DNA of 64,000 nucleotides from Haloarcula hispanica ATCC 33960 (GTDB lineage Archaea > Halobacteriota > Halobacteria > Halobacteriales > Haloarculaceae), in assembly GCF_000223905.1 (NCBI RefSeq), contig NC_015943.1:372001-436000 (forward strand). The letters are read 5' to 3'. A program made the translations under genes and the position numbers. Below the pieces are notes generated by a model that saw nothing but the letters and a program-made list of their open reading frames with translations, had not been told where the DNA came from and did not search any database. Below are positions 29,471 through 54,563 of this stretch, piece after piece. How positions within the stretch are numbered: the stretch's first letter is position 1; each line of letters opens with the position of its first letter.

Positions 29471-32386
29471 TCACAATGGGAGAGTCAAACAGTAGTTCTC
29501 AACCTCGGGCGCCAGTGAGATGATCTGTTCTCGGCGCTCTAATTCACGGCGACGTGTCTCGATTCGCTCTTCGAGCTGTGCAAGTCGCTCCTGTTGGCCA
29601 CGGATCGCGATGTCCATATCCGAGCCGGCGTCGGATTTGCGCTCGTACTCCTCGATGAAGGCCTCGATCCGTTCTCGTTCCGCCTGTGCATACTCCTCGA
29701 GATTTTCCAACTCCTGGGCAGTCTCCTTGTGACGTTTCTCCTGAAGATGGTTCTTGATCTCGTTGACACGCACGCTCACGTACCGGTCAGCGGCCGCCCG
29801 TAAGTCGGATTGAGCGTCGAGAACCGTTCGCAAGTCGTCGACGTCGGGCTTTGCTGCTACCGAGTCGCCTTCGACGACACGTTCACCAAGCGCCTGCTGA
29901 GCGTCCCCTTGCGTCGCATCCACGAAGACGGGGATGGTCTCCTCACGAATCACATCGCCAGTGCCGTCCTCGAACGCCACGCGATAGTTGTAGGTGATCC
30001 CCGGCGTGTCGACGAACGGCAGCAGTTTGAGTCCGACCGCACCGCGCTCGTCCTCCAACACGCGTGCCATGAGCCGTTGCAGGACGTCCGTGTCCGGAGC
30101 GAGGTAGGTGATGTCCTCGTGATCCATCGCGAAGTCGCGGTCGAACGTGAACGGGCCGAACGTCGCATCTTGGCCGGGCGAATTGATCCCATCAGGCAAC
30201 TCGGCTTGATAGAGGTTGGTACCGCGTTTCTCGAATTCGCCTCCGAAGGCTTCGACTGCTCGCTCGAAGAACTCGCGAATGTCTCCCTCGCTTCCGTAGA
30301 CGTCCGCTGACTCGTCGACGACCTCCTGAATCTGCCGGCGACTCTCCGCGTCGAACGTGCTCGTATCGACGAGGCTCCGCTCGTACCACTCCTCAAGCGT
30401 CCGCTGGCGCTCCTCGATCAGCTCCTCGAGTTCCGCTTTGGTCGCACTCGGCGGGTCGTCGTTCTCGATGGACTCCATGATGAGCGCATCCACGTCGATG
30501 TCGTCGAGGATGCCAAGCACGTCCGCTGTGTTTCCGAGCTGGGAGCGGATCTCCTCGACCTTGGTCTGGAGCATTTCGAAGATTTCGCTCTCGCGGGTGT
30601 CGTCGAAGAGGAAGTTCCAGACCTTGACCTCCTCTTCCTGTCCGTAGCGATGGATGCGTCCGATCCGCTGTTCGAGGCGGTTCGGGTTCCACGGAAGCTC
30701 GTAGTTAGCCATGATGTGACAGCTGTGCTGGAGATCGATCCCCTCACTCGCTGCATCGGTCGCGAACAGGAGTCGTGACTGCCCGTGATTGAACTCGTCT
30801 TCGATCCGGGTCCGTTCGTCCTTGTCAACGTCGCCGTGAATCACCAGAATCTCGTCGGCCCACGGCTCGTCCTGCACGAATTCGAGAAGGTAGTCCAGCG
30901 TATCGCGGTACTCCGTGAACAACAGGAGTTTCTCGTCCGGCTGTTCCTCGAGGAGTTGGGAGATGAACCGTCTGACTTTCTGGGCCTTGGAGTCGACCGG
31001 TAGATCCTCCGCCAGCGACACGAGGTCGCGGAGCGTATCGATCTCCTCTTGGAGTTGTTCGTCGGTACTGGTGACGGTCAGACCGGCGATCTCGTCTTCC
31101 GCGTGTTGCTTGTCGTCCTCGTCTAGATCCTCGCCGTCGAGATAGGCTCGTGCTTCCTCGGAAAGACCGTCTGTCTCTGCCTCTTCGTCGAGAAGGTCGT
31201 CCAGTCGTCGTCGGAGCGTCGCGTGAATCGCGCCGACGCTGCTCACCAGTCGTTTCTGCATGAGCGCCATCGCGAACCCGACCGCGGGTTCGTTCAGCTT
31301 CTCCGAGCGGTTGTAGACGTTTTTCACGTAGTCGGTGACAGCCCGGTAGAACTGTCGTTCGTCGTGGGTCATCGAGACCGATACCGAGTTGACCTCGCGG
31401 TCCGGGAAGACGCGTTCACCGTCCTCGTCGTAGATGTCGGTCTTCCCGCGACGGATCATGACGCGGTCGACTGTTTCCTGTGAGAGTTCCTGGTTTTCGG
31501 CGACGAGGAACGGATCGATGTACTCCACGAGCGAGCGGAACGCCTCGCCCTTCCCGTCGTGTGGCGTCGCGCTGAGAAGCAGCAACGAGTCGGAGTTCCC
31601 CGTGACGGCGTCAATCATCCGTGCCGTCTTGCTCGGTGAGTCCCCCCGCTTTGCAGCCTTGTGGGCCTCGTCGACCACGACGACGTCCCAGAACGCGTCC
31701 CGGAGTGCAGGCCGGAACTCGTCCTGCCGCAGGAACGCCATGCTGGTGACGAGCCGTTGCTGGTCTTGGGCCCAGATGTTAGCCTCCTCGCCGAGCCGTC
31801 GGCGCTCACCTTCCACCCACGCGCGGTCTGCCACGGTCAGGTCGATGTCGAAGAAGCGGTCCATATCCCGGATCCATTTCTTCTGGAGGTGGGCGGGAAC
31901 GACGAACAGGACGCGGTCAGCGCGATTCCGTGCAGCGAGTTCCTTGAGGACGAGGCCCGCCTCTATCGTTTTCCCGAGCCCGACGTCGTCACCGATAAGC
32001 GCCCGCTGCCGGAGCTTCTGCATCACCCAGTTTACGGCGTCAAGCTGATACGGTTCGAGCCGAACGAGCGAGTTCGAGATGCTCAGGAGCTGTCCCTGTT
32101 CGTGAGCGAGTTTGAGCTTCGTCGCCTGCGTCCGGAGGTCGAACCACTGCGCCGCGACCGCATCGTGATCCGGATGAAGGTCGTCGATTCGCTGGTTGGC
32201 CAGTTCCTCGATTCCGGACTGCTGTGGCTGAATCTCTACATCGTCGAGACAGACAGTCTTGACGCCTTCCCCCTCGATATACGCTCTCAAATATTCGATC
32301 TCGCCGACTGTCTGTGTTTTGATGACTTCAGCCGGTGTTCCGTTGAGAAGGACTCGTTGCCCGGACGAGAATGAAGAATCCGTCAT
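29471..32386 (-). CDS. brxHII: SNF2/HepA-type helicase of the BREX island
   Basis: 971 aa. Superfamily 2 motifs are in order: GDDVGLGKT (Walker A, residues 132-140), VVVDEAHKAAK (about 237), LLLSATPHDGKG (about 270), VIHGDVDKDERTRI, FATDAASEGIDLQ and the arginine finger region RIGRIHRYGQ (about 578). A long charged, coiled-coil-rich C-terminus (about residues 860-960) ends the protein. It resembles the COG0553 helicases of type 5 BREX (BrxHII) and DISARM DrmD. It should translocate on DNA using ATP during phage exclusion. It is the last gene of the island in transcription order, 82 bp after a PglX gene. Confidence 0.85.
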   Translation of the reverse strand: MTDSSFSSGQRVLLNGTPAEVIKTQTVGEIEYLRAYIEGEGVKTVCLDDVEIQPQQSGIEELANQRIDDLHPDHDAVAAQWFDLRTQATKLKLAHEQGQLLSISNSLVRLEPYQLDAVNWVMQKLRQRALIGDDVGLGKTIEAGLVLKELAARNRADRVLFVVPAHLQKKWIRDMDRFFDIDLTVADRAWVEGERRRLGEEANIWAQDQQRLVTSMAFLRQDEFRPALRDAFWDVVVVDEAHKAAKRGDSPSKTARMIDAVTGNSDSLLLLSATPHDGKGEAFRSLVEYIDPFLVAENQELSQETVDRVMIRRGKTDIYDEDGERVFPDREVNSVSVSMTHDERQFYRAVTDYVKNVYNRSEKLNEPAVGFAMALMQKRLVSSVGAIHATLRRRLDDLLDEEAETDGLSEEARAYLDGEDLDEDDKQHAEDEIAGLTVTSTDEQLQEEIDTLRDLVSLAEDLPVDSKAQKVRRFISQLLEEQPDEKLLLFTEYRDTLDYLLEFVQDEPWADEILVIHGDVDKDERTRIEDEFNHGQSRLLFATDAASEGIDLQHSCHIMANYELPWNPNRLEQRIGRIHRYGQEEEVKVWNFLFDDTRESEIFEMLQTKVEEIRSQLGNTADVLGILDDIDVDALIMESIENDDPPSATKAELEELIEERQRTLEEWYERSLVDTSTFDAESRRQIQEVVDESADVYGSEGDIREFFERAVEAFGGEFEKRGTNLYQAELPDGINSPGQDATFGPFTFDRDFAMDHEDITYLAPDTDVLQRLMARVLEDERGAVGLKLLPFVDTPGITYNYRVAFEDGTGDVIREETIPVFVDATQGDAQQALGERVVEGDSVAAKPDVDDLRTVLDAQSDLRAAADRYVSVRVNEIKNHLQEKRHKETAQELENLEEYAQAERERIEAFIEEYERKSDAGSDMDIAIRGQQERLAQLEERIETRRRELERREQIISLAPEVENYCLTLPL

Positions 32387-32468: not shown

Positions 32469-35400
32469 TCAGAGTACGTTGTCCGCCACCACTTCCGGGA
32501 CGATGTCTTGCTCGGCGAGCGGCGTGATGTTGATCGCGACGCCGTGTTTGTGGGTGGGCTGGTAGCCCGCGGTCACGACTTCTGAGAGCGCCCGTTCCTC
32601 CCAATCGCCGGAGATATCGGTCGCAACCTCGTCGCAGTTTGCAGCGATTTCGTCGGCCAGTTGCCGATACTCGTCAACGTCGGCCGCGAGTTCTGCGAGC
32701 AGTCGCTGCCGCTCGGCGACGCCGGTGTCTCCGATCTGTGACTGCTCGGCATCCTCGAACTGTTCGAAGTAGTACGTCATGAACAGGATCCCGTTGCTCG
32801 CGTAGTGGGAGGAGCCGACGAGATCGTCGTAGTACTCGAAGAGGTCGTAGAGATGTGCTTCGACGGGTTCGGAGCCGTCTTCGGCGTACGCTTCGAAGGC
32901 AGTCTGTAGGTCGTCGAGCGCATCGACCCACTCGTCTTTGTTCTCCTGTACCGTCTCGTAGAACGAGGGACTGAACAGGTCTGCCATATCTACGTCCTTC
33001 AGGTCGGCGAGGGTTTCGAGAGTGTCTAGCCGTGATGCTGTCCGCTCCCGGAACTCCGCCACGCGTTCGGCCGCCTCGGCCGCGCGTTCCTGATTCACGC
33101 TGGGCCAGTCACGCGGGGTGGCCTGCGAAAGGTCGCCAAGCCGTTCTTCGAACGCGCTGAGCTGTTCGAGGGCGCTCTCACACTGGTCGTACTCTTCGGC
33201 GGCGTCGGCTCGCTCAGTGGTCGAGAGCGATTCGTCGTTCCGACGGCTGTTTGCCGCCGCCTGGCGTTCGCGGAGGTGCGTCCGCCGCGGTTCGAGATAC
33301 TGGTTCTGCAGTCGGTCGAAGATGCTCGCGTCCAACTGATGGTAATCGACGAGACAGCCGAAGCCCTCGCCCGTGGCGTCGGAAACGAGTCGCTCGGTCG
33401 AAAGCCGCCAGAGGATCGGCGTTCGGTCGAACTCCGCGACGTGGTACTCGAACAGGTCGTTTTCGAGCCACGCCCGAAGGTTCGGGTACGCTTCGTCGCT
33501 CGCGTTGCGGTTCCCGAGTACCGCGTCGGCTTCCGCGAGGCGGTCGGTCGCGTGCTCGCCCCAGACACGTTCGAACTCCGCCTCGATGTGGGTCAGAAGG
33601 TCGTCCGTGCCGTCGATTTCGGAAAGCGGGATAATGCCGTCATCGGTGTCGTTGATCGCTCGGAGCGTGAAGTGGAGAAGGAGGTCTTTGACCTGTTCCG
33701 GGAAGTCGCTAGACGGCTCTGAGATGGCCGCTGGAGCATACACTTCCTGTTCGCGTGGATCTTCGATGGTTCGGAGCGCGATCTCCTGAAGGATCGTTTC
33801 GCGTTGCCCGTCGGTGATGTCGAAGCAATCGAAGACGGCATCGTCGATGTCGTTCGCACAGGACTGGAGGGTTTGCTCGACTCGCGCCAAGTGTTTCGCG
33901 GCGGCAGTTCCGACCTGATTGAGCGAGTCTGCCGTGGACACAGTTTGTGTCGGGCTATCGAGCGAAAGTTCGTCCCGAAGCTCGCGGTGTGGATGATCGT
34001 ACTGCGGTAGCGGGTCATCGACACCGAGTGCATCGAGCAGGACAGGCCCATCGTAATGCGGCGACACGAAGTCGTACTGCCGCTTCGAGATGAGGTGCCC
34101 GACGGCTTCCCGGGCGAGGGTCGCCAGTTCGTCGATCTCTTCGAGTTCTGTCCGCCACGGGACTTTCGAGACGAACCCGACTTCCCACATTCGCTCGGAG
34201 GTCTGTGCAAGCATCAGATACGTGAATAGATGGCTATTCGTGTACGAGAGAGCGTTCCAGATAGCCCGATCCGGAATCAGAACCGAGCCCTTGTGACCGA
34301 AGACGGACGAATCGTGGAGATACCCGAACCTCCGACCGCTTCGCTTTGCGACGGTGTACGTTAATGATTCGTTGAAGTAGGCGTCTGTATTGCGGGGGTA
34401 GGATTTCGGGTATCTATCGACTTCCGTCCCGTCTTCTCCCCAGAGGAGGGTGTTCTTTATTCGAGGCAAAAGCCACGCATCAGCGCCCCCCTTCGCAAAC
34501 GGCACCCATTCAGCGCCCCTGTCTTCCCAGAACTTATGCACGAACCGGGAATCGTCTGCGGTTGCGGTACCCTGTTTGATGTCTCCAAGCGTCTCCCGGT
34601 CCTCTAAGCCCGCATTATCCGCGTCGAGAACGGTATCGGACTGATAGATGCTTCGCAGGCCTCGTGGCACCCAATAAGAAAGCGGCGTGCCGGGAACCAT
34701 CGCAAACTCGGACAGGTCTCGGTGATAGAGTCGCTTGACACCGGTTTCAGACCCCTCGAAAGACGCGCGGATGAATTCCCCTTCCTTCTCACCCTTTGCA
34801 ACATCCGGGAGGCGGATGAACGTCCCTGTCTGCCCGCTGTCTGCCTCGGAGCGAACAACTGTCCCGACAGTGCCGACGGTCGCGTTGTCGAGGATGTCGT
34901 ACCCGAACTCTGAGAAGAAGTCGAACGCACCTCTCCCACCGACGAAATCCTCCCGGAAGGTCTGGAAGGACTTGTTGAACATGAACGACCACGGAACGAG
35001 CATCCCCGTGCGTCCGTCGGCTTTGGCCAGCCGATCACACGCCTCGAAGAAGTTGATGTAGTACTCCGTCGTATATTTGTAATTCTCGTTCTCTTCGACG
35101 TATTCCTGCACGGTGTCCGGCATTCGTCCCCCCGAACCATACGGCGGGTTCATAAGCGCCACGTCGTACGATTGGCTTAACACTACCAGCAGATTCAGGA
35201 AACTCTTGAGGTTCTGTTCGCCGAACGAATCTGACGAGCGCTCACCAACGGCTTCTCGAAGTGCCTTCAAGAAGGAGTTCAGCGACTGGTGTGTTCCGTC
35301 GCCCCAGTCCGAGAGGTCCGTCTGACCGCTCTCGAACACGTCTTCGAGCGTCCCGCTCACGTCCAGCAGGCTCCCGAGGGCTTCCGTGTGCTGGAACGTG

Positions 35401-36665
35401 TCGATGATCTCTCCCAGCGCAGCACGCAGGTCCGTTCCCTCGCCGGTAATGTCGTCCAGCACTTCTGCGCCTTCCTCAACGTCCGCCACGCGGGCGTCCG
35501 CACAGACGATGTCGACGCTGGGCATCTCGAACTGGCCGTCTTCCGCTTCGGTACGTGTTCTGGCCTTCAGATACAGATTGAACGCCGAGAGCTGACACGA
35601 GCGCAGGTCGATGTCGACGCCGTAGAGGTTGTGCTCCAGCACCTTCGCCGGGATCTCGGCTCGGTCGAGATCGGTTTCGGCCCACCAGATGCGCTCCAGT
35701 ACGTCGAACGCATAGAGGAGGAAATGGCCGCTCCCACAGGCCGGGTCGATGACCCGCAGTTCCGACGGATGATCGAACTCCGGTGCATCGCCGGCCTCCT
35801 CGTCAGGGATAAGGTACGTACAGAGTTCGGGAACGGACGGGCTGTCCTCCGGCGTGACCAAGCGCTCTTTTCGCTCTTCGGGGCTGAGAGCGTCCGGATT
35901 CGGAACGGCGTCTTCCTGCTCAGTCGCTTCGAGATAGAGTTTGCCGAGGGAGTTGTCGGTGAGCATTCGGACGACCCAATGGGGCGTGTAGAACTGGTTC
36001 GCCGGTCCCACGTCCTCCGGTTCGAGCGTGTTCTTCGCGTCGAGCGCCTCGACAACGGGACGGTTGTAGTACTCGTACACCCAGCCCAGCACGTCGTCGG
36101 CCCGCCAGACTTCGTCGGGGACCTCGTCCAGCATTCCGCAGAGATCTTCGTAGGTGTCGTCGTCGGGGTCGATCAGGCTGTAGGCGGTCGAGCGGTCGAA
36201 GAGGATCTCGATCTCCGCGGCCAGTTTGTCGCACGCGTTCCGATAGGCTTCGAGGACGGCCTCCTCTTCCAGCATGAACTCCTCGGTGACAAGCCGGTCA
36301 GCGGCCGGGGTGAGGCCGTCGTCGCGGAAGGCCGTCACTTCGTCGTCGATGAAGTCCCGGACCTCCATGCAGCGAAGCGCGGCCAGCCGATTGACGACCG
36401 TGTAGCCGACGCCCGTAATGTACTGTTCGTGGGCCTCCTCCCAATCGTGGCCATCGGCGGCTTCGAGTTCGATAGCTTCCACGAGGGTTTCCTGCGTCTC
36501 GCTCAGGGACGCGTCATCAGGACGGTCTGCCAGATCAGACGCTTCGAGCTGGTAGCGAACGTTCGCCTCGATACGGTCTCGCATCTCGGTGACGACCGCT
36601 TCGAGGTGTTCGCGCTCTTCCTTGTCGAGTTGCGCCTTTCGGGGGGCCAGAGCGTTCCCATCCAT
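32469..36665 (-). CDS. pglX: PglX-type adenine-specific DNA methyltransferase (copy 1)
   Basis: 1398 aa from the ATG at 36665, chosen because its MDGNALAPRKAQLDKEEREH opening matches the start of the second copy; an in-frame ATG ten codons upstream exists. SAM-binding motif I VIDPACGSGHFLLYAF is near residue 305 and the catalytic NPPYGSGGRM (motif IV, N6-adenine type) near residue 505. The C-terminal target-recognition and coiled-coil part ends with the family-like GYQPTHKHGVAINITPL. In BREX, PglX methylates a non-palindromic host site and is needed for exclusion. It shares long near-identical stretches with copy 2, including a 98-bp perfect match, but differs in the centre. It lies downstream of pglZ. 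Confidence 0.9.
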   Translation of the reverse strand: MDGNALAPRKAQLDKEEREHLEAVVTEMRDRIEANVRYQLEASDLADRPDDASLSETQETLVEAIELEAADGHDWEEAHEQYITGVGYTVVNRLAALRCMEVRDFIDDEVTAFRDDGLTPAADRLVTEEFMLEEEAVLEAYRNACDKLAAEIEILFDRSTAYSLIDPDDDTYEDLCGMLDEVPDEVWRADDVLGWVYEYYNRPVVEALDAKNTLEPEDVGPANQFYTPHWVVRMLTDNSLGKLYLEATEQEDAVPNPDALSPEERKERLVTPEDSPSVPELCTYLIPDEEAGDAPEFDHPSELRVIDPACGSGHFLLYAFDVLERIWWAETDLDRAEIPAKVLEHNLYGVDIDLRSCQLSAFNLYLKARTRTEAEDGQFEMPSVDIVCADARVADVEEGAEVLDDITGEGTDLRAALGEIIDTFQHTEALGSLLDVSGTLEDVFESGQTDLSDWGDGTHQSLNSFLKALREAVGERSSDSFGEQNLKSFLNLLVVLSQSYDVALMNPPYGSGGRMPDTVQEYVEENENYKYTTEYYINFFEACDRLAKADGRTGMLVPWSFMFNKSFQTFREDFVGGRGAFDFFSEFGYDILDNATVGTVGTVVRSEADSGQTGTFIRLPDVAKGEKEGEFIRASFEGSETGVKRLYHRDLSEFAMVPGTPLSYWVPRGLRSIYQSDTVLDADNAGLEDRETLGDIKQGTATADDSRFVHKFWEDRGAEWVPFAKGGADAWLLPRIKNTLLWGEDGTEVDRYPKSYPRNTDAYFNESLTYTVAKRSGRRFGYLHDSSVFGHKGSVLIPDRAIWNALSYTNSHLFTYLMLAQTSERMWEVGFVSKVPWRTELEEIDELATLAREAVGHLISKRQYDFVSPHYDGPVLLDALGVDDPLPQYDHPHRELRDELSLDSPTQTVSTADSLNQVGTAAAKHLARVEQTLQSCANDIDDAVFDCFDITDGQRETILQEIALRTIEDPREQEVYAPAAISEPSSDFPEQVKDLLLHFTLRAINDTDDGIIPLSEIDGTDDLLTHIEAEFERVWGEHATDRLAEADAVLGNRNASDEAYPNLRAWLENDLFEYHVAEFDRTPILWRLSTERLVSDATGEGFGCLVDYHQLDASIFDRLQNQYLEPRRTHLRERQAAANSRRNDESLSTTERADAAEEYDQCESALEQLSAFEERLGDLSQATPRDWPSVNQERAAEAAERVAEFRERTASRLDTLETLADLKDVDMADLFSPSFYETVQENKDEWVDALDDLQTAFEAYAEDGSEPVEAHLYDLFEYYDDLVGSSHYASNGILFMTYYFEQFEDAEQSQIGDTGVAERQRLLAELAADVDEYRQLADEIAANCDEVATDISGDWEERALSEVVTAGYQPTHKHGVAINITPLAEQDIVPEVVADNVL
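36112..36209 (-). repeat. 98-bp direct repeat, copy A (inside pglX copy 1)
   Basis: These 98 bases are identical, in the same orientation, to 43289-43386 in the other pglX gene, 7177 bp away. The repeat encodes the conserved IDPDDDTYEDLCGMLDEVP region. The perfect match at nucleotide level, including third positions, suggests recent duplication or gene conversion. Confidence 0.9.
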
Positions 36666-36743
36666 ATGAGAGTCAGTGATATTCTCCCAGTACAACTGTG
36701 GTCTCTTGAATATTGCCCCATCGCGATGGCTCGACCAGGACAG

Positions 36744-38936
36744 CTACCCCTGCGTGATGCTGATGAAATCGAGCACGAACTCCTGTGGGAGCAGGCCACC
36801 GTGGTAGAACCGTGCGTCCCCGAGGCCCTGCTTTTTGAACCGCTTGAGCGGGCTCGCCAGGACGCTGACGTTGGCATCGAGATACCCCAGCCGGGAGCTG
36901 GAGTCGAGTAACACGCCGGGCGAATCCTCGTCCACGTCCTCCCCAGCGATCCATCGGCGTCCGGAGTCGGACGCTTCCGCTGGCCGAGAAATCTTCTCCG
37001 GCGACGCGCTGTCCGGGAGCAGGACGAACCCGTGGTCGGTCAGCACGTAGGCCTGGTCCCACTCTCCCTGTTCGAGCTTCGTCCCGATGAACTCCGCGAG
37101 CGAGTCGACGCGTCGGGCCAGCATCGCCTCGAGGTCGCTGAGTTCCTTCTCGCCAATGTCGTCGAGGTCGTTTTTGAAGTAGGCGACGCGCGTCGACTGC
37201 CAGCCGTCCTCGGTGTCGCGAGTGACCGTCCAGCCGTCGCCGCCCAACAGCGAGTTCCGCCGGTTCGTGTTCACCTTTCGGTTGTTTCGAAGGGGCTGTA
37301 ACTCGCCGTCGACCAGCGAGACGTCGAACATCTGGATCTCGCCCGGCGTGAGTGCGGCCTTCCCGAACTCGGTCTCCGAGGGCAGCGTCCCGAGCCAGAC
37401 GTCTTCGTCGACGGCGAACTCGGGGGCGTCGGCCGGGAGCGTCGCCACGTAGTCGCGCAACTCGTCCGCGAGCCGGCGCGCGAGGTCGAGTCGGAGGGCG
37501 TCGATGACAAACAGTGCGACCGTCTGGCCGCTTTCGAGGCCGGCGGACTCCTTCGTGAAGAACTGATAGGAGTGGTCCTCGTCGACGAACGGAGCGCCGG
37601 CCTCGACAGTTTCGGTGACGCGGTCGCCGAGGGCTTCGAGGTACTCGACGTATTCCGACTGGAGCTGGGTGCGGAGGTCGTCAAGGGTATCGACGGCAGG
37701 ATGGTCGGCAGGGAGGTCGGACTCGGGCGCGCCGGCGACGACGAGGCTGAGCATCGCGTTGTCGATCTGCCACGTTCCGTCGTCCGGATCAGCGTACAGC
37801 GAGACGACGTCGTCGGTGGCCCTCTCGTCCCACGTCTCGAGTTGGTGTGCGAGGCGGGCGACCTCCGCGGCCTGCTCCCACGTCTGCGTCCACGGACTGT
37901 CCGGGCCGTAGGCACCGCGGTAGGTGCCACGGAAGTCCTCGCTGCCAAGGAGGGCGTCGTACCGCTCCGCCGCGCGCTCGAGACACGTCTCGTAGTCGCC
38001 GGCGTCGAAGGACGCGTGCCACTCCTCCCAGAGACGACGTTCGAGCGCGGCGTCAACGAGACAGTCCGCGAGGTCCCACGGGTCGTCGACGGCCGCGACG
38101 ACGTCGGGCCAGGTCGCTTCGCCGAGGTAGCGGTCGGCGAGGAGACCGGCCGAGGTGGTGTTGTTCAACAGCGACTTGAGTTCGGGGAGGTCGTGATCGC
38201 CGGCCGTCTCGGCGCGGCACTCCGTCGGGAACCGTTCGGCGTCGACACCGGCGTGGATCAGCCACTCGGCGACGGCCCACCGACGCGTCGCCGCGACGAT
38301 CCCCGCGGGTTCGTCCTCGCTGGCGACCGCGTCGACGCCCTCGCTGGTCAGCAAGTCCTGCATCTGCTCGATGGTTCCGGGGCTGTCGTCGATATCGCCC
38401 CAGCCGTTCTCCAGCACGAACGCGACCGGGTCGGTGTAGCCGCCGGTGACGATCCGCGTGCGGAGCTGTTCGAGCGTCGGGAGCTGGCCGCCGGTGAGCT
38501 GGTCGTGGAGAATCCGCGCGATCTCGCGGCGCTTTGTGGGGTCGTCCGCCTGCGTCGCGGTTTTCAGCTCCCACGCGTCGAGTTGCCCGCGCTCGAACGC
38601 GTGGACGGTGAGGTCTTCGATGCTCATCTCCACGTCGCCGCCGGTGTGCTCGACGTCGCGGAACCAGTCGAAGTCGCCCTCGGCGTCTTCGGGCTCTTTG
38701 ACGTGTGGGACGTACCAGACCTGTTCGCCGTCGACCGGGTTGGCACGGAGTTCCAGCGGCGTCTCCTCGGCGACTTTCAGGTGAACGCCGAGTTCGTCGC
38801 AGGCCTGCTCGATGATGTCCTCGAGGTAGTTCCCGTCGTCCCACCAGAGGACAATCGGGTCCGCTGATTCGGCTCGGTCGAACTTTTTTCGGATGGTGTC
38901 TTTCGCGGCTTCGGGAAGGGTCTGTTTCGCTTGCAT
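36744..38936 (-). CDS. pglZ: PglZ, alkaline-phosphatase-superfamily BREX protein
   Basis: 730 aa. The PglZ domain lies in the C-terminal half: VALFVIDALRLDLARRL (about residue 477) with the metal-binding Asp, LPSETEFGKAALTPG, VLTDHGFVLLP and FYHGGLLPQEF (about 709). The N-terminal half is helical with WWDDGNYLEDII. PglZ is a defining BREX and Pgl component, a predicted metal-dependent phosphatase or nuclease needed for both methylation and phage exclusion. It starts 2 bp after the stop of the 177-aa gene and lies upstream of pglX copy 1. Confidence 0.92.
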   Translation of the reverse strand: MQAKQTLPEAAKDTIRKKFDRAESADPIVLWWDDGNYLEDIIEQACDELGVHLKVAEETPLELRANPVDGEQVWYVPHVKEPEDAEGDFDWFRDVEHTGGDVEMSIEDLTVHAFERGQLDAWELKTATQADDPTKRREIARILHDQLTGGQLPTLEQLRTRIVTGGYTDPVAFVLENGWGDIDDSPGTIEQMQDLLTSEGVDAVASEDEPAGIVAATRRWAVAEWLIHAGVDAERFPTECRAETAGDHDLPELKSLLNNTTSAGLLADRYLGEATWPDVVAAVDDPWDLADCLVDAALERRLWEEWHASFDAGDYETCLERAAERYDALLGSEDFRGTYRGAYGPDSPWTQTWEQAAEVARLAHQLETWDERATDDVVSLYADPDDGTWQIDNAMLSLVVAGAPESDLPADHPAVDTLDDLRTQLQSEYVEYLEALGDRVTETVEAGAPFVDEDHSYQFFTKESAGLESGQTVALFVIDALRLDLARRLADELRDYVATLPADAPEFAVDEDVWLGTLPSETEFGKAALTPGEIQMFDVSLVDGELQPLRNNRKVNTNRRNSLLGGDGWTVTRDTEDGWQSTRVAYFKNDLDDIGEKELSDLEAMLARRVDSLAEFIGTKLEQGEWDQAYVLTDHGFVLLPDSASPEKISRPAEASDSGRRWIAGEDVDEDSPGVLLDSSSRLGYLDANVSVLASPLKRFKKQGLGDARFYHGGLLPQEFVLDFISITQG

Positions 38937-38938
38937 GA

Positions 38939-39472
38939 TTATTCTGACTGCTGTTGTTCGACTTGTTCTAGAAGTTTCTCTCGTACCTCATTGCTGATTC
39001 GTGCAACACCGACTCGCTCGTAGGTGACTATTTCGCAGTTCTTCTGTTGAAGCGGGTCAAAATCTATAGCGTCGAGGGAGCTTCGAGCTGCACCAAGGCA
39101 CCATACAGAGTCGGGCTTTGCTCGATCAACAATTTGTTCCCAGTTACTTACTATGAGAGAGTCGAATCTAGATGACGAAAGGAGAATTACTACGACATCT
39201 GAATCAGCAACTCTCTCTAAGACTGTGCTTAGAACTTCTCCTTCATCTTCACTCGCTGCTTGGTCTTGGGGACGACATTTGTTCACATTCTCTCCCCCTC
39301 TGACGAGTCCGAATCGCTCCGATAGGATGTGTAACTGAACGTCCCCATACTCCCCAAGCTGATCGGCTAGGCTGGAAACTGTGAGGAATCCACCTTGATA
39401 GAACCGCTTAAACGGAATATCTGTCTCTTCCCGCGTAGTTCCCGCGTCTTCGGCAAAAATACTGATGGTCAT
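38939..39472 (-). CDS. Unknown 177-aa protein between the second PglX and PglZ
   Basis: 177 aa, cytoplasmic, with no signal peptide or membrane segment. The central VQLHILSERFGLVRGGENVN recalls the ILSAKYGLL motif of YaaA/DUF6884-type proteins, which handle nucleic-acid-related substrates, but this resemblance is weak. The N-terminus has an FKRFYQGGFLTVSSLADQLG motif. Base composition is visibly more AT-rich than pglZ or the PglX ends. It is packed 2 bp before pglZ and 59 bp after pglX copy 2, so it is expressed with them. It could be a BREX accessory, a regulator or an anti-restriction sensor. None of these is demonstrated. Confidence 0.55.
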   Translation of the reverse strand: MTISIFAEDAGTTREETDIPFKRFYQGGFLTVSSLADQLGEYGDVQLHILSERFGLVRGGENVNKCRPQDQAASEDEGEVLSTVLERVADSDVVVILLSSSRFDSLIVSNWEQIVDRAKPDSVWCLGAARSSLDAIDFDPLQQKNCEIVTYERVGVARISNEVREKLLEQVEQQQSE

Positions 39473-39531
39473 GATAGTGGTCTCTTTGAGTTGAGGGTTT
39501 ATTTACTCACCATTAGCTTCTCTGACAGCAA

Positions 39532-42500
39532 TCAGAGTACCTTGTCCTCAACGACTTCCGGAACAACATTCTTCTCCGTGAGCGGCGTGATGTTGATAAT
39601 GACGCCGTGATTCTGGTTGGGCTGGTAGCCAGCGGTCGTGATCTCCGATAGTGCCCGGTCTGACCAGTCCGAGGGAATTTGCTTGTCTACCGTCTGGCAG
39701 CGATCGTTGATCTCCTCGGCGAGCGCCTTGAACTCCGCTAGCGGTGGTAAGTCGTCTATATCGTCGACGTCCTCTACGTCTGCCATCTGCTGAAGGTACT
39801 CCTCGTCGAGGACGGACGCGTCGTTGACGCCCGTCGCAAGCGAGGCGAGCATCTCCTCGTCTTCAGTGAGGGTGTCGAACGGTTCGCCCTCGCCGTTGAG
39901 GAGCTTACTCCCCTCACGTTCGAAGTAGTAGGTCATGAAGAGGATGCCTGTGCTAGAGTAGTGATCCGAGCCCTTGAGTCGCCAGTTAAAGTAGTCGAAG
40001 AGGTCTGCTAGGTGAGCCTCAACGGGTTCGTCACTCGGCTTGGCGTACTCCTCGCAGGCGTTTTCGAGTTCGTCGAGAGCCTCCAGCCATTCATCGCTCC
40101 ATTCGTTGACCGCCTCCCAGAAGTTGTCCGAGAAGGTGTCTTGGAACCACTCCTCGCCGTTCATCTCGCGGAGTTGTTCGAGCGTCTCGATGCGTTTGGC
40201 TGTCTCTTCGCGGAACGCAGCCACCTTCGGTGCGAGTTCTTCGACGAGTTCACGGTCATCCTCATCGAAGTCGCGCTCGCTCGTGCTGCCGAGTTCCTGC
40301 ATCACCTCTTCGAATTCGGCGATCTGTTCGAGGGCGCTTGAGCAGAATTCAAACTCTTCGGTAGCCTCGGCCCGTTCACTGGTCGAGAGCGACTCGTCGT
40401 TCTGCCGTTGATTCGCAGCTGCCCGGCGTTCGCGAAGTTCAGCTTTCCGGGGCTCAAGGTACTGGTTGCTCAGCCGGTCGAAGAGGCTGGCGTCAAGCTG
40501 GTGGTAGTCAACAAAACAGGCGAAGCCTTCGCCTTTCGCGTCGGCAAGGAGCCGTTCCGTACTGAGCTTCCATATGATGGGCGTGTTCTCCATCGTCTCG
40601 ACGTGGTACTCGAAAAGGTCGTCATCGATGAACGCCCGGAGGTTGGGGTAGGCTTCGTCGGCGGCCGACTCAGCCCCGAGGATGTCGTCAACTTCGACGA
40701 GGCGATTTTCGGCGTACTCGCCGTACGCGTCATGGAACCGGTCGACGATCCGATCAAGCATATCGGGCTGGTCGTCCGCGCTCTTGAGTGGAATGACGCC
40801 GTCGTTTTCTTCGCGGACGGCTTCCACCGCGAAGTGGTGGATGAGGTCTTTGACCTGTTCCTCTAAGTTATCAGGTGTTTCAGAAACAGTTTCATTACTT
40901 TCGCTGTTCTGATTTTTACCAGTCCGAAGGCGGATCTCTTCTTCAATTTGTTTCTGTGTATTTCCTGATATACCAGCCAAATCGTAGACAAGACTGTTAA
41001 TATTCTCTGCAAGAGTCTCTAACCTTTGTCTAGTCGATATTCCTTCCGTTTTTGCGGTCTTCGCAGCCTCTATAATGCTTTCTTCTTTCGGTGGCGACTG
41101 CTCCTTTGCCTCAGATACTAGGTCAATCTTCTTTGAATGAGGATGTTGGTAGAAATACCCTCGATCACCTGTTATTGGAAGAATGTCCGGTGAGATATAG
41201 TATGGACTAACTGGATCACTTGTTTTTGTGCTCGCCATTATACTGAGTTGTTCTTTTGCTAAGGATTCTAGTTTTTCCTCACCCTCAAACGCCGTGATCC
41301 AAGGAGCACGACCTACAATACCACCGACCCAATCTCGTTCAACGGTAAGTGATAAGAACAGAGAGTGGTACAAGTCGCTATTTAGGCTTGCAAGTAGTTG
41401 CCACAGTAGATCTGAATCCTTTGGAACAAACAAGTACCCTGTTTGGCTGAATAATCCATCAGAGGGGTAATATCCGAACCGTCTACCCGTCTCTTTCGAC
41501 CGTGTCCAGACAAGACCCTCTCTACCATATAAAAACTCGTTTGGTGTTCTTACAGTACCACTATACCTCTTGATCCGAGTTCCTTGGTCTCTCCATCTAA
41601 CAACTTCCACAATTTGGGGTAAAATCCACGCGTCCGATCCACCAGTAGCAATAGGGTTGAACGTATCGAAATCATCAGTTTCCCAGTGGAACCGCATGAA
41701 CCGGAAATCGTTCGTTGTCGCGATTCCTTGCCGAGCATATCCGATTGATTCTCCATCAATATCGCTGACCTCACAGTCTAACCTCAATTCTGTATCATGT
41801 AGATCCCGAACTTCTTCGGGGGTGGAATAGCAGATTGTATTCCCCGGAACCTTCGAAAATGAATCTAAATCCACCTCGAACAACCTCTGAACGTCCGGTT
41901 CGTCACCCGATAAAACTTCAACAAACTTCTCCTCTTTACTCGAAGCTTCGAGATCATATAGACGGATAAACTCTCCAGATGGATCAGGCTCTACACCAGA
42001 CCTAACAACAGTTCCTGCTGTTCTTACAGTTGCATTATCTAAAACTCCTAAACCGAACTCTGCAAGGAAGTCGAAACTCCCCTCACCACCTATGAAATCA
42101 GATCTGAACTGCTCCGCACGAGCCTTGAACATAAATGTCCGCGGAACGAGCATCCCAATTCTACCGTGATTCTTGGTGATGTCATCACACACTTCAAAGA
42201 AGTTTACATAAAATTCAGCAGGGTATCGATAGTGATCATCAATATATTCTTTTACTGAGGGTGGCATTCTGTTCCGCGATCCGTAGGGAGGATTCATCAA
42301 CGCAACATCATAGTCCTGTGCTAGCACGTCTAGCAACCGAATGAAACTCCGTAAGTCTTGAGCTAAGAACGAGTCTCCTTGTCGATGTTCGTCTACTGCA
42401 TCTCGAAGACTGTGAAGAATCTGGCCAAGTGTATGATCGTCACGAGGGTCATCTTCGAGGGTGATCTGTACACTTTCCTGATCAATTTTGTCTTCGAATA

Positions 42501-43899
42501 GCTCATCAAGTGTACCACGTACATCAAGTAGACTACCAAGTCCGTGGACTCCTTCAAATGCGTCGAGGATCTGCCTGAGTGCGTCTTTTACGTCCGATTT
42601 GCCGCCAGCCACCTCGTCGAACACTTCCTCGACGCCCTCGATGTCAGCCACCTTCGCGTCAGCACAGACGATGCCGACTTCTGGCATATCGAAGCCAGTT
42701 GCCCCTTCGGCCTCGGCACGCGTCCTCCCCTTCAGATAGAGATTGAACGCGGCCAGTTGGCAGGCCCGCATATCGAGGTCGACACCATGGAGGTTGTGCC
42801 GCAGAATCTCCCGCGGAATCTCCGCGTGGTCAAGGTCGGTCTCTGCTCGCCAGATGCGCTCCAGGACGTCGAACGCGTACAGGAGGAAGTGGCCGCTTCC
42901 ACAGGCCGGGTCGATGACGCGAATGTCTTCTGGGCCGTCGAACGCCGGTGGCTCGCCTTCCTCCTCCGAGGGAACGAGATAGGTACAGAAATCCGCCAAG
43001 TCCGGGGATTCGTCGGGGGAGAGTGGCCGGTTCTTGCGCTCGTCCGGCGTCAGCGCGTCCTGTGCTTCGACGGTCTCCTGCAGCGTTCCGTTGTCTTCGA
43101 GATAGAGTTTGCCGAGCGAGTTGTCGGTGAGCATCCGGACGACCCAATGGGGCGTGTAGAACTGATTCGCCGCCGGCACGTCTTCGGGCTCCAATCCTTC
43201 GCGGTCGCCCTTCCGACGCAGGTCATCGAGGAGTTTGACGTTGTAGTACTCGTACACCCACCCCAGTACGTCGTCGGCTCGCCAGACCTCGTCGGGGACC
43301 TCGTCCAGCATTCCGCAGAGATCTTCGTAGGTGTCGTCGTCGGGGTCGATCAGGCTGTAGGCGGTCGAGCGGTCGAAGAGGATCTCTATTTCATCAGCGA
43401 GGGCGTCGCATTCGTTCCGATAGGCTTCGAGGACGGCCTCCTCCTCCAGCATGAACTCCTCGGTAACCAACCGGTCAGCGGCCGGTGTGAGGCCGTCGTC
43501 ACGGAACGACGTGACTTCGTCGTCGATGAAGTCCCGAACCTCCATACATCGGAGGGCCGCCAGACGGTTCACGATAGTGTAGCCGACGCCCGTGATATAC
43601 TGCTCGTGAGCGGCCTCCCAATCGTGGCCGTCGGCGGCTTCGAGTTCGATAGCCTCGACCAGGTTTTCCTGCGTCTCGCTCAGGGACGCGTCGCCGTCCT
43701 CGCGAGCGGCAGCGAGGGAGGACTCGTCGGCGCTTGCTCCGACGGTGTCCGGCTTCTCGTCGAGGCCGTACTCGTCTTCGAGCTGGTAGCGAACGTTCGC
43801 CTCGACCCGGTCGCGCATCTCGGTGACGACGGCTTCGAGATGCTCGCGTTCTTCCTTGTCGAGCTGGGCCTTGCGGGGGTGGGTAGATTGTCCGTCCAT
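39532..43899 (-). CDS. pglX: PglX-type adenine-specific DNA methyltransferase (copy 2, mosaic)
   Basis: 1455 aa. Motif I VIDPACGSGHFLLYAF is near residue 327 and NPPYGSRNRM near residue 533. Ends match copy 1 closely: N-terminal DKEEREHLEAVVTEMRDR and C-terminal GYQPNQNHGVIINITPL. The middle, about 40870-42600 (residues about 433-1010), is AT-rich: G+C is 25/60 at 41161-41220 and 22/60 at 41221-41280, against 37/60 at 43321-43380. This part includes the NPPY motif and the expected target-recognition region, so a foreign specificity segment in a local framework is likely. No frameshift was seen, so the gene should be active. Confidence 0.9.
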   Translation of the reverse strand: MDGQSTHPRKAQLDKEEREHLEAVVTEMRDRVEANVRYQLEDEYGLDEKPDTVGASADESSLAAAREDGDASLSETQENLVEAIELEAADGHDWEAAHEQYITGVGYTIVNRLAALRCMEVRDFIDDEVTSFRDDGLTPAADRLVTEEFMLEEEAVLEAYRNECDALADEIEILFDRSTAYSLIDPDDDTYEDLCGMLDEVPDEVWRADDVLGWVYEYYNVKLLDDLRRKGDREGLEPEDVPAANQFYTPHWVVRMLTDNSLGKLYLEDNGTLQETVEAQDALTPDERKNRPLSPDESPDLADFCTYLVPSEEEGEPPAFDGPEDIRVIDPACGSGHFLLYAFDVLERIWRAETDLDHAEIPREILRHNLHGVDLDMRACQLAAFNLYLKGRTRAEAEGATGFDMPEVGIVCADAKVADIEGVEEVFDEVAGGKSDVKDALRQILDAFEGVHGLGSLLDVRGTLDELFEDKIDQESVQITLEDDPRDDHTLGQILHSLRDAVDEHRQGDSFLAQDLRSFIRLLDVLAQDYDVALMNPPYGSRNRMPPSVKEYIDDHYRYPAEFYVNFFEVCDDITKNHGRIGMLVPRTFMFKARAEQFRSDFIGGEGSFDFLAEFGLGVLDNATVRTAGTVVRSGVEPDPSGEFIRLYDLEASSKEEKFVEVLSGDEPDVQRLFEVDLDSFSKVPGNTICYSTPEEVRDLHDTELRLDCEVSDIDGESIGYARQGIATTNDFRFMRFHWETDDFDTFNPIATGGSDAWILPQIVEVVRWRDQGTRIKRYSGTVRTPNEFLYGREGLVWTRSKETGRRFGYYPSDGLFSQTGYLFVPKDSDLLWQLLASLNSDLYHSLFLSLTVERDWVGGIVGRAPWITAFEGEEKLESLAKEQLSIMASTKTSDPVSPYYISPDILPITGDRGYFYQHPHSKKIDLVSEAKEQSPPKEESIIEAAKTAKTEGISTRQRLETLAENINSLVYDLAGISGNTQKQIEEEIRLRTGKNQNSESNETVSETPDNLEEQVKDLIHHFAVEAVREENDGVIPLKSADDQPDMLDRIVDRFHDAYGEYAENRLVEVDDILGAESAADEAYPNLRAFIDDDLFEYHVETMENTPIIWKLSTERLLADAKGEGFACFVDYHQLDASLFDRLSNQYLEPRKAELRERRAAANQRQNDESLSTSERAEATEEFEFCSSALEQIAEFEEVMQELGSTSERDFDEDDRELVEELAPKVAAFREETAKRIETLEQLREMNGEEWFQDTFSDNFWEAVNEWSDEWLEALDELENACEEYAKPSDEPVEAHLADLFDYFNWRLKGSDHYSSTGILFMTYYFEREGSKLLNGEGEPFDTLTEDEEMLASLATGVNDASVLDEEYLQQMADVEDVDDIDDLPPLAEFKALAEEINDRCQTVDKQIPSDWSDRALSEITTAGYQPNQNHGVIINITPLTEKNVVPEVVEDKVL
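43289..43386 (-). repeat. 98-bp direct repeat, copy B (inside pglX copy 2)
   Basis: Identical to 36112-36209 and in the same orientation. Crossing over between the copies would fuse the two pglX genes and delete pglZ and the 177-aa gene; gene conversion would instead exchange flanking specificity segments. Confidence 0.9.
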
Positions 43900-44417: not shown

Positions 44418-45461
44418 TCACTCGGTAGTCTCGCCGAGTATCTCCCGAGCCTGAGATTCAAGCGCGTCAAAATCGATCTCCTGATTCGGGTTACAGGTGA
44501 TTCTCACTCCGCTTCGGCCACTGCCCCGCATATCCTCTTTGACTGCAACCGACTCGGCATCGATCCCGAGTGCATCCGCAATCTCCGCAGCGTCAAGCGA
44601 CGCCGTATCGACGTCGTACAGGTCGATGTGGAACAGCGTCCGCTTCGTCCGGATCGCGGTGCGACGTTTTCGGCCCTTGTTGAACGCGACGTAGTGCTTC
44701 TGCCCCCACTCCGGCCCGTTGAGGAACTCCAGTTCCTGCAGCGCGGCTGTGACGTCTTCCAGCAAACCGGCTGTTTCCTCATTTGAACGCTCGTTGAGGT
44801 GCCAACTCTGTCCGTCCTCCTTCCACGGCTCGTCAGAGGTGTCGGGACTTACGTCCGTCACGGTGTGTTCTGGTGTCGGGATCGTCTGCTCTGCGTCAAG
44901 ATACAGCCGGTCGCCGTCCTTGAGGAGCTGGAACTCGATGACGGAGATGTCGATCGATCTGTCGCTGAGCCACCGGAGCACGATGTCCAGCCGCTCGCGG
45001 ACGGATTCACCGACGAAGACGATTCGCTGATCCTGATTGAGCGTGTAGTCCTCGTTGCAGAACTCGTCAAGCACCTCGGTAAACGTGGTTTCCTCTTCAT
45101 AGAGCGTCCGACCCCACGACGTGGACTTGAACTTCTCGAACTGGTCGCGGAGTTTGGAGTAATCCCAGTGCGAGGTGTAGGCGGCGTACTTGAGTCCCTG
45201 AAAATCGACCTTCGGCTTTAGCGCGCCTCGTTTGAGTTCGATAGCGACCACGTTAGCGTCTCGGTCGATGGCGAGAAGGTCGATGCCATCGCCGATCTGC
45301 TTTACAGAGACCTCCCGTCCGACCAGTCGAAAGTCCTCTCCGAGGATGCTCTCGGGACTATTGATAATCCACTCTCGGAGGTCATCCTCACGAAATCCCT
45401 CTTCCTTCAGGGAGACCGTTTCTAACGTGGAAACGTCTTCCTTGTCCCCGACTCTAAGCAT
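44418..45461 (-). CDS. PD-(D/E)xK nuclease-like protein (NucS/DUF91-related) within the BREX island
   Basis: 347 aa. The N-terminal domain has the order expected for this nuclease fold: a Glu-rich helix (REDDLREWIINSPESILG), GDGIDLLAIDRDANVVAIELKRG with D61, E75 and K77 as the metal and catalytic residues, then the QGLKYAAY helix. A C-terminal domain of about 150 residues (HYVAFNKGRKRRTAIRTKRTLFHIDLYD) looks like a separate DNA- or partner-binding module. It lies between BrxC copy 2 and PglX copy 2 with gaps of 162 and 518 bp, unlike the overlapping genes around it, so it may have its own promoter. A nuclease effector or repair-type role is inferred. Confidence 0.7.
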   Translation of the reverse strand: MLRVGDKEDVSTLETVSLKEEGFREDDLREWIINSPESILGEDFRLVGREVSVKQIGDGIDLLAIDRDANVVAIELKRGALKPKVDFQGLKYAAYTSHWDYSKLRDQFEKFKSTSWGRTLYEEETTFTEVLDEFCNEDYTLNQDQRIVFVGESVRERLDIVLRWLSDRSIDISVIEFQLLKDGDRLYLDAEQTIPTPEHTVTDVSPDTSDEPWKEDGQSWHLNERSNEETAGLLEDVTAALQELEFLNGPEWGQKHYVAFNKGRKRRTAIRTKRTLFHIDLYDVDTASLDAAEIADALGIDAESVAVKEDMRGSGRSGVRITCNPNQEIDFDALESQAREILGETTE

Positions 45462-49466: not shown

Positions 49467-50044
49467 TGGAGATGCACCCCCTCAACCCGGCCTTCGATCT
49501 GGTGGGCCGGGTAGTAGTTACGCGATTCCTCGCCGAAGAAACTCAGCTTCCCACCGACGATATCTCCGGGGAACGGAATGCCGATAGTCGACTGGACGTT
49601 GCGACGGTCGAGTTCGTCGAGGAGCTCCGACGCACGCGTGAACGGGTAGAGGCTGCCGAGATGTGTGAGGAGGACGACGTGTCGCTGCTCGCCCGGTGCC
49701 TCGATCCTATCGAGCATAATTCCGACCAGTTCTTCCGCTAGCCGGTCTTGCATCGTTTCGGTGATCGTCGCTGGTTGGCTGTGCTTCCCGAGGTCAACTG
49801 CGAGTTCGAAGACTTCTGTTTCGACGAACACCTCGTCTAACCGGAGGATCTGGACGGTTCCGTCGTCCGGGAACTCCTCGGTTCGGTGCGGGTTCGTCGC
49901 CCACTCGGTGAGCCGTTCGGCGACGCGTCGCTCGTACTTCGGCTGGACGGGAACGATGACGAACGGGTTTCGGATGCCGCGTCGCCCGTCGGCGAACTGT
50001 GCGATCCGATCCGTGAAGTCCCGGAAGGGACGTTTTGTCGTCAT
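49463..50044 (-). CDS. brxB: BrxB (DUF1788) BREX protein
   Basis: 193 aa, the usual BrxB size. Family-like features are NPFVIVPVQPKYERRVAERL near the start, HVVLLTHLGSLYPFTRASELLDEL in the middle and GIPFPGDIVGGKLSFFGEESRNYYPAH near the end. BrxB is a small core BREX protein required for defence, with unknown biochemistry. It overlaps both neighbouring brxC genes by 4 bp (ATGA), placing it between the two large ATPases and suggesting a shared complex. Confidence 0.88.
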   Translation of the reverse strand: MTTKRPFRDFTDRIAQFADGRRGIRNPFVIVPVQPKYERRVAERLTEWATNPHRTEEFPDDGTVQILRLDEVFVETEVFELAVDLGKHSQPATITETMQDRLAEELVGIMLDRIEAPGEQRHVVLLTHLGSLYPFTRASELLDELDRRNVQSTIGIPFPGDIVGGKLSFFGEESRNYYPAHQIEGRVEGVHLQ

Positions 50045-53724: not shown

Positions 53725-54563
53725 ACTTCGCCCTCCCACGGTTCAGCCCAGCCGTACGTGTCATCGACCGGCTGGAGTCGCAACTCACCGTGAATCCCGC
53801 TCGCTTCCCAGTTCGGATCGTCGCTCACGCGTTCGGCCAGGGCGTCCCAGTACTGGTCCGGCTGGAAGAGGTAGAGCCAGCCGGTCGGCTGGGAGAGCCA
53901 GTCGTCGCCGTGGATCTCCCACGAGTAGCCTGATGCGACGAGTAACGGCGTCGACCCGAGGTTTGGGATCTGTCCCTGCAAGGTCTGTTGTGTGTCGAGA
54001 ACACCGATATCGCGCAGCACCGACCGGAGCCCCTCTCCCCACCGTCGCGTCGTCGATTCAGCATAGTCAAACTCGCTCCCGTCCTCGTAATGGAACTCGC
54101 TCAGGAGGCGCTCTATCGTCTCCTGCTCGAATCCCAGCCCGTCGACACCGGACTCCTGCAGGCGGTCGACGTATCGATGTACCGTGTACCTCACGAGGGG
54201 ATCGTCTTCCAGCAAATAGAAATACAACACCTGCGCTTTGTCACGCACCGTCTCACACCGGTCGAGTACAGAGGGGAGCTGGACAATAGAGGGAAGTTCG
54301 CTGCCAGCGGTCTTGAACCGCGAACTGAGTGCGCGGTAGATGCCCTTCGAACTCCCACGCGTGCTGCGCTCGTCGAATCGCTCTTCGATCCACTTCTCTT
54401 CGACAACCGTCCAGTCCCGATGGTGGGCGTACAGTCGAGCGAGCGTCTCCGCTCTGTCAACGAGAAGCCCGCATCTAGTAAGAACCATCGTCACTTCGTC
54501 GTCAGAAAACGTCGAGTCGAGCGACGGTAGAGAAACACCCCTCCCGTCGGTGCGGAGAGTCAT
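53721..54563 (-). CDS. brxA: BrxA-like (DUF1819) BREX protein, first gene of the island
   Basis: 280 aa. The pattern STRGSSKGIYRALSSRF, SVLDRCETVRDKAQVLYFYLLEDDPLVRYTV, then ESTTRRWGEGLRSVLRDIGVLD matches the helical BrxA/DUF1819 fold, which has a DNA-binding NusB-like core. The C-terminal 80 residues (WLYLFQPDQYWDALAERVSDDPNW) extend beyond the compact BrxA length. It heads the minus-strand BREX genes and is coupled to the first brxC by a GTGA overlap. BrxA is a small core component; its exact activity is unsettled. Confidence 0.75.
   Translation of the reverse strand: MTLRTDGRGVSLPSLDSTFSDDEVTMVLTRCGLLVDRAETLARLYAHHRDWTVVEEKWIEERFDERSTRGSSKGIYRALSSRFKTAGSELPSIVQLPSVLDRCETVRDKAQVLYFYLLEDDPLVRYTVHRYVDRLQESGVDGLGFEQETIERLLSEFHYEDGSEFDYAESTTRRWGEGLRSVLRDIGVLDTQQTLQGQIPNLGSTPLLVASGYSWEIHGDDWLSQPTGWLYLFQPDQYWDALAERVSDDPNWEASGIHGELRLQPVDDTYGWAEPWEGEV

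What the first reader, a model, noticed from the sequence alone, without database searches (positions are those of the whole stretch)
36112..43386. 98-bp perfect direct repeat linking two PglX genes: possible specificity switch or deletion hotspot
36112-36209 and 43289-43386 are identical base for base and lie within homologous N-terminal coding regions in the same orientation. Recombination would fuse the two pglX genes and delete pglZ and the 177-aa gene; conversion would swap specificity segments without loss. Such an arrangement could diversify BREX methylation.
Basis: partly seen in the sequence, partly recalled or inferred. Interest (0 to 1): 0.72.

Follow-up and report, generated by a model that had tools for sequence, protein, structure and literature searches.

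The report
Shared front end of two PglX genes
In a salt-loving archaeon's BREX antiviral system, two DNA-marking enzymes share a near-identical stretch because it was copied between them, and it sits at the natural joint where a fixed front end meets an enzyme body that relatives swap freely, a hint of how these systems change their DNA targets.

Summary
They are the perfect part of a 147-bp tract (36063-36209 / 43240-43386, 4 mismatches) in two pglX genes flanking pglZ in a haloarchaeal (Haloarcula) type-5 BREX operon.

The tract is not in a specificity segment. It encodes the end of the N-terminal helical domain, just before the methyltransferase core; the target-recognition region is only about 33% identical.

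Purifying selection alone does not explain the identity. Fixed differences between the two genes stop abruptly at one edge and resume at the other, and inside the tract the copies resemble each other more than their counterparts in a sister species: a short gene-conversion tract.

The wider finding: across 46 haloarchaeal loci, PglX residues 1-205 track PglZ (r = 0.90) while the rest hardly does (r about 0 to 0.2). Swaps cluster at codons 190-229, the domain boundary where the repeat lies. So PglX looks like a locus-bound front end joined to a freely exchanged catalytic/recognition body.

No sign of an active switch: direct repeats, deletion would remove pglZ, and no such product occurs in 32 Haloarcula genomes. 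Real diversification is replacement of the upstream gene's body (H. amylolytica differs over 3.7 kb).

The parts
36112..36209 (-). 98-bp perfect repeat, copy in pglX_D (codons 163-195 of the TTG-started ORF)
43289..43386 (-). 98-bp perfect repeat, copy in pglX_U (codons 172-204)
36063..36209 (-). full shared tract (147 bp), D copy; identical over 147 bp to the U gene of H. amylolytica
43240..43386 (-). full shared tract (147 bp), U copy; 4 differences from D at 43261, 43267, 43279, 43288
43273..43899 (-). pglX_U N-terminal module (about codons 1-209), the part that tracks PglZ
   Evidence: domain boundary by alignment to BrxX
36096..36665 (-). pglX_D N-terminal module (probable ATG start 36665)
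   Evidence: start inferred by alignment with pglX_U
39532..43899 (-). pglX_U, BREX-5 PglX methyltransferase, body family a
   Evidence: NF033454 2258 bits; PADLOC PglX
32469..36695 (-). pglX_D, BREX-5 PglX methyltransferase, body family b
   Evidence: NF033454 2462 bits; PADLOC PglX
40750..41982 (-). pglX_U hypervariable segment containing the target recognition domain (codons 640-1050)
   Evidence: 33% aa identity to D, about 50% to closest relatives
38940..42630 (-). segment replaced relative to H. amylolytica: body of pglX_U plus g177; flanks about 98% identical
   Evidence: edge between 42610 and 42646
36744..38936 (-). pglZ (BREX-5), between the repeats
   Evidence: NF033444 1164 bits
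38939..39472 (-). 177-aa gene of unknown family, patchily present
   Evidence: no family hits; presence/absence
29471..32386 (-). brxHII helicase
   Evidence: PADLOC BrxHII 2110 bits
45624..49466 (-). brxC copy 1
   Evidence: PADLOC BrxC 2595 bits
49463..50044 (-). brxB
   Evidence: PF08747, PADLOC BrxB
50041..53739 (-). brxC copy 2
   Evidence: NF033441 248 bits, below curated cut-off
53721..54563 (-). brxA
   Evidence: PF08849 21.9 bits, just below cut-off
44418..45461 (-). 347-aa NucS_C-like candidate defence gene inside the operon
   Evidence: PF01939 at cut-off, PADLOC PDC-S11

Best explanation
The repeat is the surviving perfect core of a ~147-bp ectopic gene-conversion tract between two pglX genes of a type-5 BREX operon. 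It lies at the end of the N-terminal helical domain, at the joint between two parts of PglX that evolve separately: an N-terminal module (about 205 aa) co-inherited with the rest of the BREX locus, and a body (methyltransferase core, recognition domain, C-terminus) exchanged between loci and lineages. Shown: the tract with its sharp edges, its discordance with the flanks, a natural chimera with the joint in the same place, and the loss of correlation with PglZ at codons 201-220. Inferred: (i) homologous recombination/gene conversion, known to be efficient in polyploid haloarchaea, made the tract; (ii) the N-terminal module is the surface that docks PglX into the resident BREX complex, so bodies can be exchanged only behind it; (iii) two pglX genes give the locus two specificities, one stable (D) and one replaced between species (U). 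It is a scar and a recurrent evolutionary joint, not a programmed switch.
For: Exact repeat. U/D fixed differences run up to 43387, are absent in 43240-43386, and differences resume at about 43239; sites there group U with D within a strain (519, 558, 579: WIN/L037 against L040). H. amylolytica U is identical to window D over 147 bp. All six intact two-pglX loci then in hand rank in the top 14 of 990 pairs for exact N-terminal run. Trees: codons 1-170 separate U and D clades (support 99 each); codons 171-220 join window and H. amylolytica U and D (75); in the bodies that union is rejected (AU p < 1e-39). L044_U (H. argentinensis) has a U-lineage front end and a family-b body (AU p = 2.4e-4). 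PglX 1-205 against PglZ distance r = 0.90 (0.82 and 0.47 within the two PglZ clades, P = 0.001 each); codons 206-640 r = 0.07, -0.02, 0.06; brxHII 0.95 and brxC1 0.98 as controls. 48 of 64 change-points fall in codons 190-229. PglZ clade changes once on the N-terminal tree, 5 times on the MTase tree. E. coli BrxX NTD is 1-210 (PMC11842806), Salmonella bundle 1-227 (PMC11341690); alignment.
Against: The short tract gives weak tree support (75), and alternative groupings inside it are not rejected (p about 0.5). The direction of conversion is unresolved. Conversion is patchy: none in L119, and in L060 the homogenised part is the body. Codons 160-205 are conserved anyway, which contributes to the identity. 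Within PglZ clade 2 the N-terminal correlation is moderate (0.47). The docking role is inferred; no structure of a BREX-5 complex was examined.
Confidence: 0.77

Rival explanations
1. Purifying selection and shared codon bias alone keep this stretch identical; no recombination is involved.
For: The N-terminal module is strongly conserved (93-97% aa between paralogues in codons 80-200) and is 87-91% identical at nucleotide level even to other genera.
Against: All codons of the repeat are identical although same-amino-acid codons match only about 0.73 of the time in the surrounding block. Orthologous D genes differ at several sites inside the repeat where U and D of one strain agree. Edges are sharp; runs in control pairs reach at most 19 codons.
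Confidence: 0.12
2. Active reversible switch: recombination between the repeats within a culture exchanges or deletes pglX segments and so changes methylation.
For: 98 bp of perfect direct repeat plus 92% over 300 bp is enough homology for recombination in principle; haloarchaea carry out efficient gene conversion (PMC8223754).
Against: The shared part carries no specificity. The direct orientation gives loss of pglZ, not inversion; no inverted repeats of 40 bp or more at 24-52 kb. No pglX-without-pglZ genome among 32 Haloarcula. D body stable across species.
Confidence: 0.05
3. Recent duplication of one pglX, the repeat being what has not yet diverged.
For: The N-terminal modules of U and D in Haloarcula group together (97).
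Against: The bodies belong to two deep families found in both PglZ clades (branch about 0.66 subst/site, support 100); the identity block has edges inside the conserved module rather than decaying with distance.
Confidence: 0.06

Closest known systems
BREX type 5 (PglX NF033454, PglZ NF033444, BrxHII, two BrxC)
   Same: All components present in one operon; this is a BREX-5 locus.
   Different: Two complete pglX genes flank pglZ. Among the type-5 loci fetched most have one pglX; 7 have two intact copies plus one with an interrupted copy.
Duplicated, inverting hsdS genes of Type I restriction systems (PMC7394358)
   Same: Two specificity genes at one defence locus that share repeats outside the recognition domain.
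   Different: Those rely on inverted repeats and DNA inversion within clones; here repeats are direct, lie before the methyltransferase core, and no within-clone switching is evidenced.
DOMO, domain movement in hsdS and Type IIG specificity genes (PMC3077401)
   Same: Recognition parts exchanged by recombination at conserved flanking sequence.
   Different: Here the exchanged unit is most of the enzyme (MTase + TRD + C-terminus), and the kept part is the N-terminal domain.
Gene conversion in polyploid haloarchaea (PMC8223754)
   Same: Plausible mechanism for the tract.
   Different: That work describes conversion between genome copies; here it is between paralogues 7 kb apart.

Membership tests
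BREX type 5 | BREX-5 PglX | tested here: met
   NF033454 2462 and 2258 bits, cut-off 900
BREX type 5 | BREX-5 PglZ | tested here: met
   NF033444 1164 bits, cut-off 250
BREX type 5 | BrxHII helicase in place of BrxL | tested here: met
   PADLOC BrxHII 2110 bits
BREX type 5 | BrxA, BrxB and two BrxC | tested here: met
   BrxB and BrxC1 strong; BrxC2 and BrxA below curated cut-offs but in position
Phase-variable (inverting) specificity locus | Inverted repeats in two specificity genes | tested here: not met
   Only direct repeats; 0 inverted pairs of 40 bp or more at 24-52 kb
Phase-variable (inverting) specificity locus | Alternative arrangements within a clone | not testable with these tools
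   No reads available
Gene-conversion tract between paralogues | Run of identity exceeding expectation, with sharp edges | tested here: met
Gene-conversion tract between paralogues | Local phylogeny groups paralogues within strain against the flanks | tested here: inconclusive
   Grouping found with support 75; flanks reject it strongly, but alternatives inside the tract are not rejected

The most novel reading that the evidence does not exclude
Haloarchaeal BREX-5 PglX is a two-part protein: a locus-specific N-terminal docking module and a portable methyltransferase/recognition body that moves even between BREX lineages whose PglZ are only about 49% identical. The domain boundary, marked in the window by the repeat, is the standing recombination joint by which BREX systems acquire new specificities, and two-pglX loci combine one kind of front end with two bodies.
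Probability: 0.5. Interest if true: 0.66.

Novelty: new variant of a known kind. Interest (0 to 1): 0.52.

Why it matters
How BREX systems change their target motif, and which part of PglX binds the rest of the complex, are open questions. A 2026 survey (PMC12839542) could only suggest from conservation that the PglX N-terminal domain engages other BREX components. The sharp loss of co-inheritance with PglZ at the domain boundary is independent evolutionary evidence for that and gives a simple domain-swap test in laboratory haloarchaea. It also corrects the tempting reading of such repeats as a phase switch.

Tried and rejected
Specificity-segment swap: rejected because the repeat is outside the recognition region and the TRD shows no U/D exchange. 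Third donor pglX in the genome: none. Deletion or fusion products: none in Haloarcula. Direction of conversion: site patterns (612, 603, 548) are mixed, left open. General N-terminal homogenisation in every two-pglX locus, my first reading: weakened (L119 none, L060 in the body instead). More distant PglZ loci (L121-L133) had no pglX detectable with these queries and were not used. A paper search for pglX with gene conversion found nothing in the held library.

Full report
WHAT WAS CLAIMED AND WHAT IS THERE. The two 98-bp segments are identical at the stated coordinates, in the same orientation, 7,177 bp apart. They lie in two pglX genes of a complete type-5 BREX operon on the minus strand, in transcription order brxA, brxC2, brxB, brxC1, a NucS_C-like gene, pglX_U, a 177-aa gene, pglZ, pglX_D, brxHII. 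The genome (3,890,005 bp in 3 contigs; this contig 488,918 bp) belongs to Haloarcula: its genus-mates include H. amylolytica, H. argentinensis and H. pellucida by matching contig lengths. From memory the sizes fit H. hispanica ATCC 33960 chromosome II; this was not tested. No other pglX exists in the genome.

WHERE THE REPEAT SITS IN THE PROTEIN. Codon-by-codon comparison of the two genes gives 67-97% amino-acid identity over most of the first 260 codons, 44-78% in the methyltransferase part and 20-41% in the recognition region. Alignment to solved BrxX/PglX places the repeat in the last part of the N-terminal helical domain, just before the methyltransferase domain: E. coli BrxX NTD is residues 1-210 with TRD 651-837 (PMC11842806); the Salmonella helical bundle is 1-227 with TRD 662-849 (PMC11341690). 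The repeat is therefore not a specificity segment.

WHY IT IS IDENTICAL. Four Haloarcula with both genes were compared site by site (the D gene of H. argentinensis is interrupted but its front end is usable). Sites fixed as one base in all U and another in all D are frequent up to 43387, absent over 43240-43386, and differences resume at about 43239. In the tract the window differs between U and D at 4 sites only; the U gene of H. amylolytica is identical to the window's D gene over all 147 bp; D genes of the window and L040 differ there at several sites at which U and D of one strain can agree. A run of 32 identical variable codons exceeds all 150 between-locus controls (maximum 19). Trees for codons 1-170 separate U from D with support 99, while codons 171-220 unite U and D of the window and H. 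amylolytica (support 75), and bodies reject that union. The most economical reading is a short gene-conversion tract in the lineage of the window and H. amylolytica, 98 bp of which is still perfect. Direction and number of events are not resolved.

IS IT GENERAL? Type-5 loci were collected through PglZ from several hundred halobacterial genomes. Seven loci carry two intact pglX flanking pglZ. Exact identity runs between the two genes are unusually long in six of them (59-228 bp), but not in L119, and in L060 the strongest homogenisation is in the body. Conversion is thus recurrent but patchy.

THE LARGER PATTERN. Distances of PglX codons 1-205 among 46 U-position genes track PglZ distances (r = 0.90; 0.82 and 0.47 within the two PglZ clades; P = 0.001 each). 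Codons 206-640 do not (0.07, -0.02, 0.06), nor does the recognition region; codons 1051-1455 reach only 0.23 overall and 0.05-0.12 within clades. In 20-codon windows the correlation disappears at codons 201-220; afterwards it is near zero apart from one stretch at 1141-1200 that reflects the split between the clades. brxHII (0.95) and brxC1 (0.98) serve as controls for co-inheritance of the locus. Change-points between genes with like front ends and unlike bodies fall at codons 190-229 in 48 of 64 pairs (pairs are not independent). On the N-terminal tree the two PglZ clades separate once; on the methyltransferase tree five changes are needed, and both body families a and b occur in both clades. 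H. argentinensis pglX_U is a clear chimera: U-lineage front end, family-b body. Five loci (window, L037, L040, L074, L076) pair one a and one b body.

HOW SPECIFICITY REALLY CHANGES HERE. Window and H. amylolytica pglX_U are about 98-99% identical to nt 1254-1290, then differ through the recognition region, stop codon and 177-aa gene (no match there) until the start of pglZ, where about 98% identity resumes. That is a 3.7-kb cassette replacement, while pglX_D stays 94-99% identical over most of its length. So one PglX is stable and the other is replaced.

MECHANISM. Shown: tract, edges, chimera, decoupling at the domain boundary. Inferred: homologous recombination/gene conversion as the process (efficient in haloarchaea, PMC8223754); the N-terminal domain as the docking surface for the resident complex, as suggested from conservation in PMC12839542, which would confine successful exchanges to the region behind it. 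A switch is not supported: direct repeats, no specificity in the shared part, loss of pglZ on deletion, no such product in 32 Haloarcula genomes.

LIMITS. One genome per species, no reads, a 147-bp tract with limited signal, Mantel-type correlations on related sequences, and quick trees. The side at 55-64 kb was not scanned for recombinases; the genes tested at 20-29 kb are mostly transporter components and hydrolases, with one MgtC/DUF4010 protein.

Noticed in passing
38939-39472: 177-aa gene between pglX_U and pglZ without any family match; present in some BREX-5 loci (39-82% identity) and absent from close relatives such as H. amylolytica, so it may travel with the pglX body.
   Followed up: partly
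44418-45461: 347-aa NucS_C-like gene (PADLOC candidate PDC-S11) inside the operon, 90-98% identical in other loci (L034, L035, L041, L045) but missing in H. amylolytica: a possible mobile accessory of BREX-5.
   Followed up: no
L044 about 6422 (H. argentinensis pglX_D): pglX_D is interrupted by an in-frame TAA while pglX_U is intact; could be a real pseudogene or a draft error.
   Followed up: no
L121-L133: A third PglZ group (36-39% identity to the window's) with brxA, brxB and two brxC but no BREX-5-like pglX or brxHII detected within the 20 kb examined.
   Followed up: no
L076 (U and D genes): 228-bp exact match between the two pglX N-terminal parts, longer than in the window, in a different family of Halobacteria.
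   Followed up: partly
43261-43288: The four differences that cut the 147-bp tract to 98 bp are clustered within 28 bp of pglX_U, denser than the divergence around; possibly a second small exchange from an unsampled donor.
   Followed up: no
36665-36695: The listed TTG start of pglX_D is probably too early; an ATG at 36665 aligns with the start of pglX_U.
   Followed up: no
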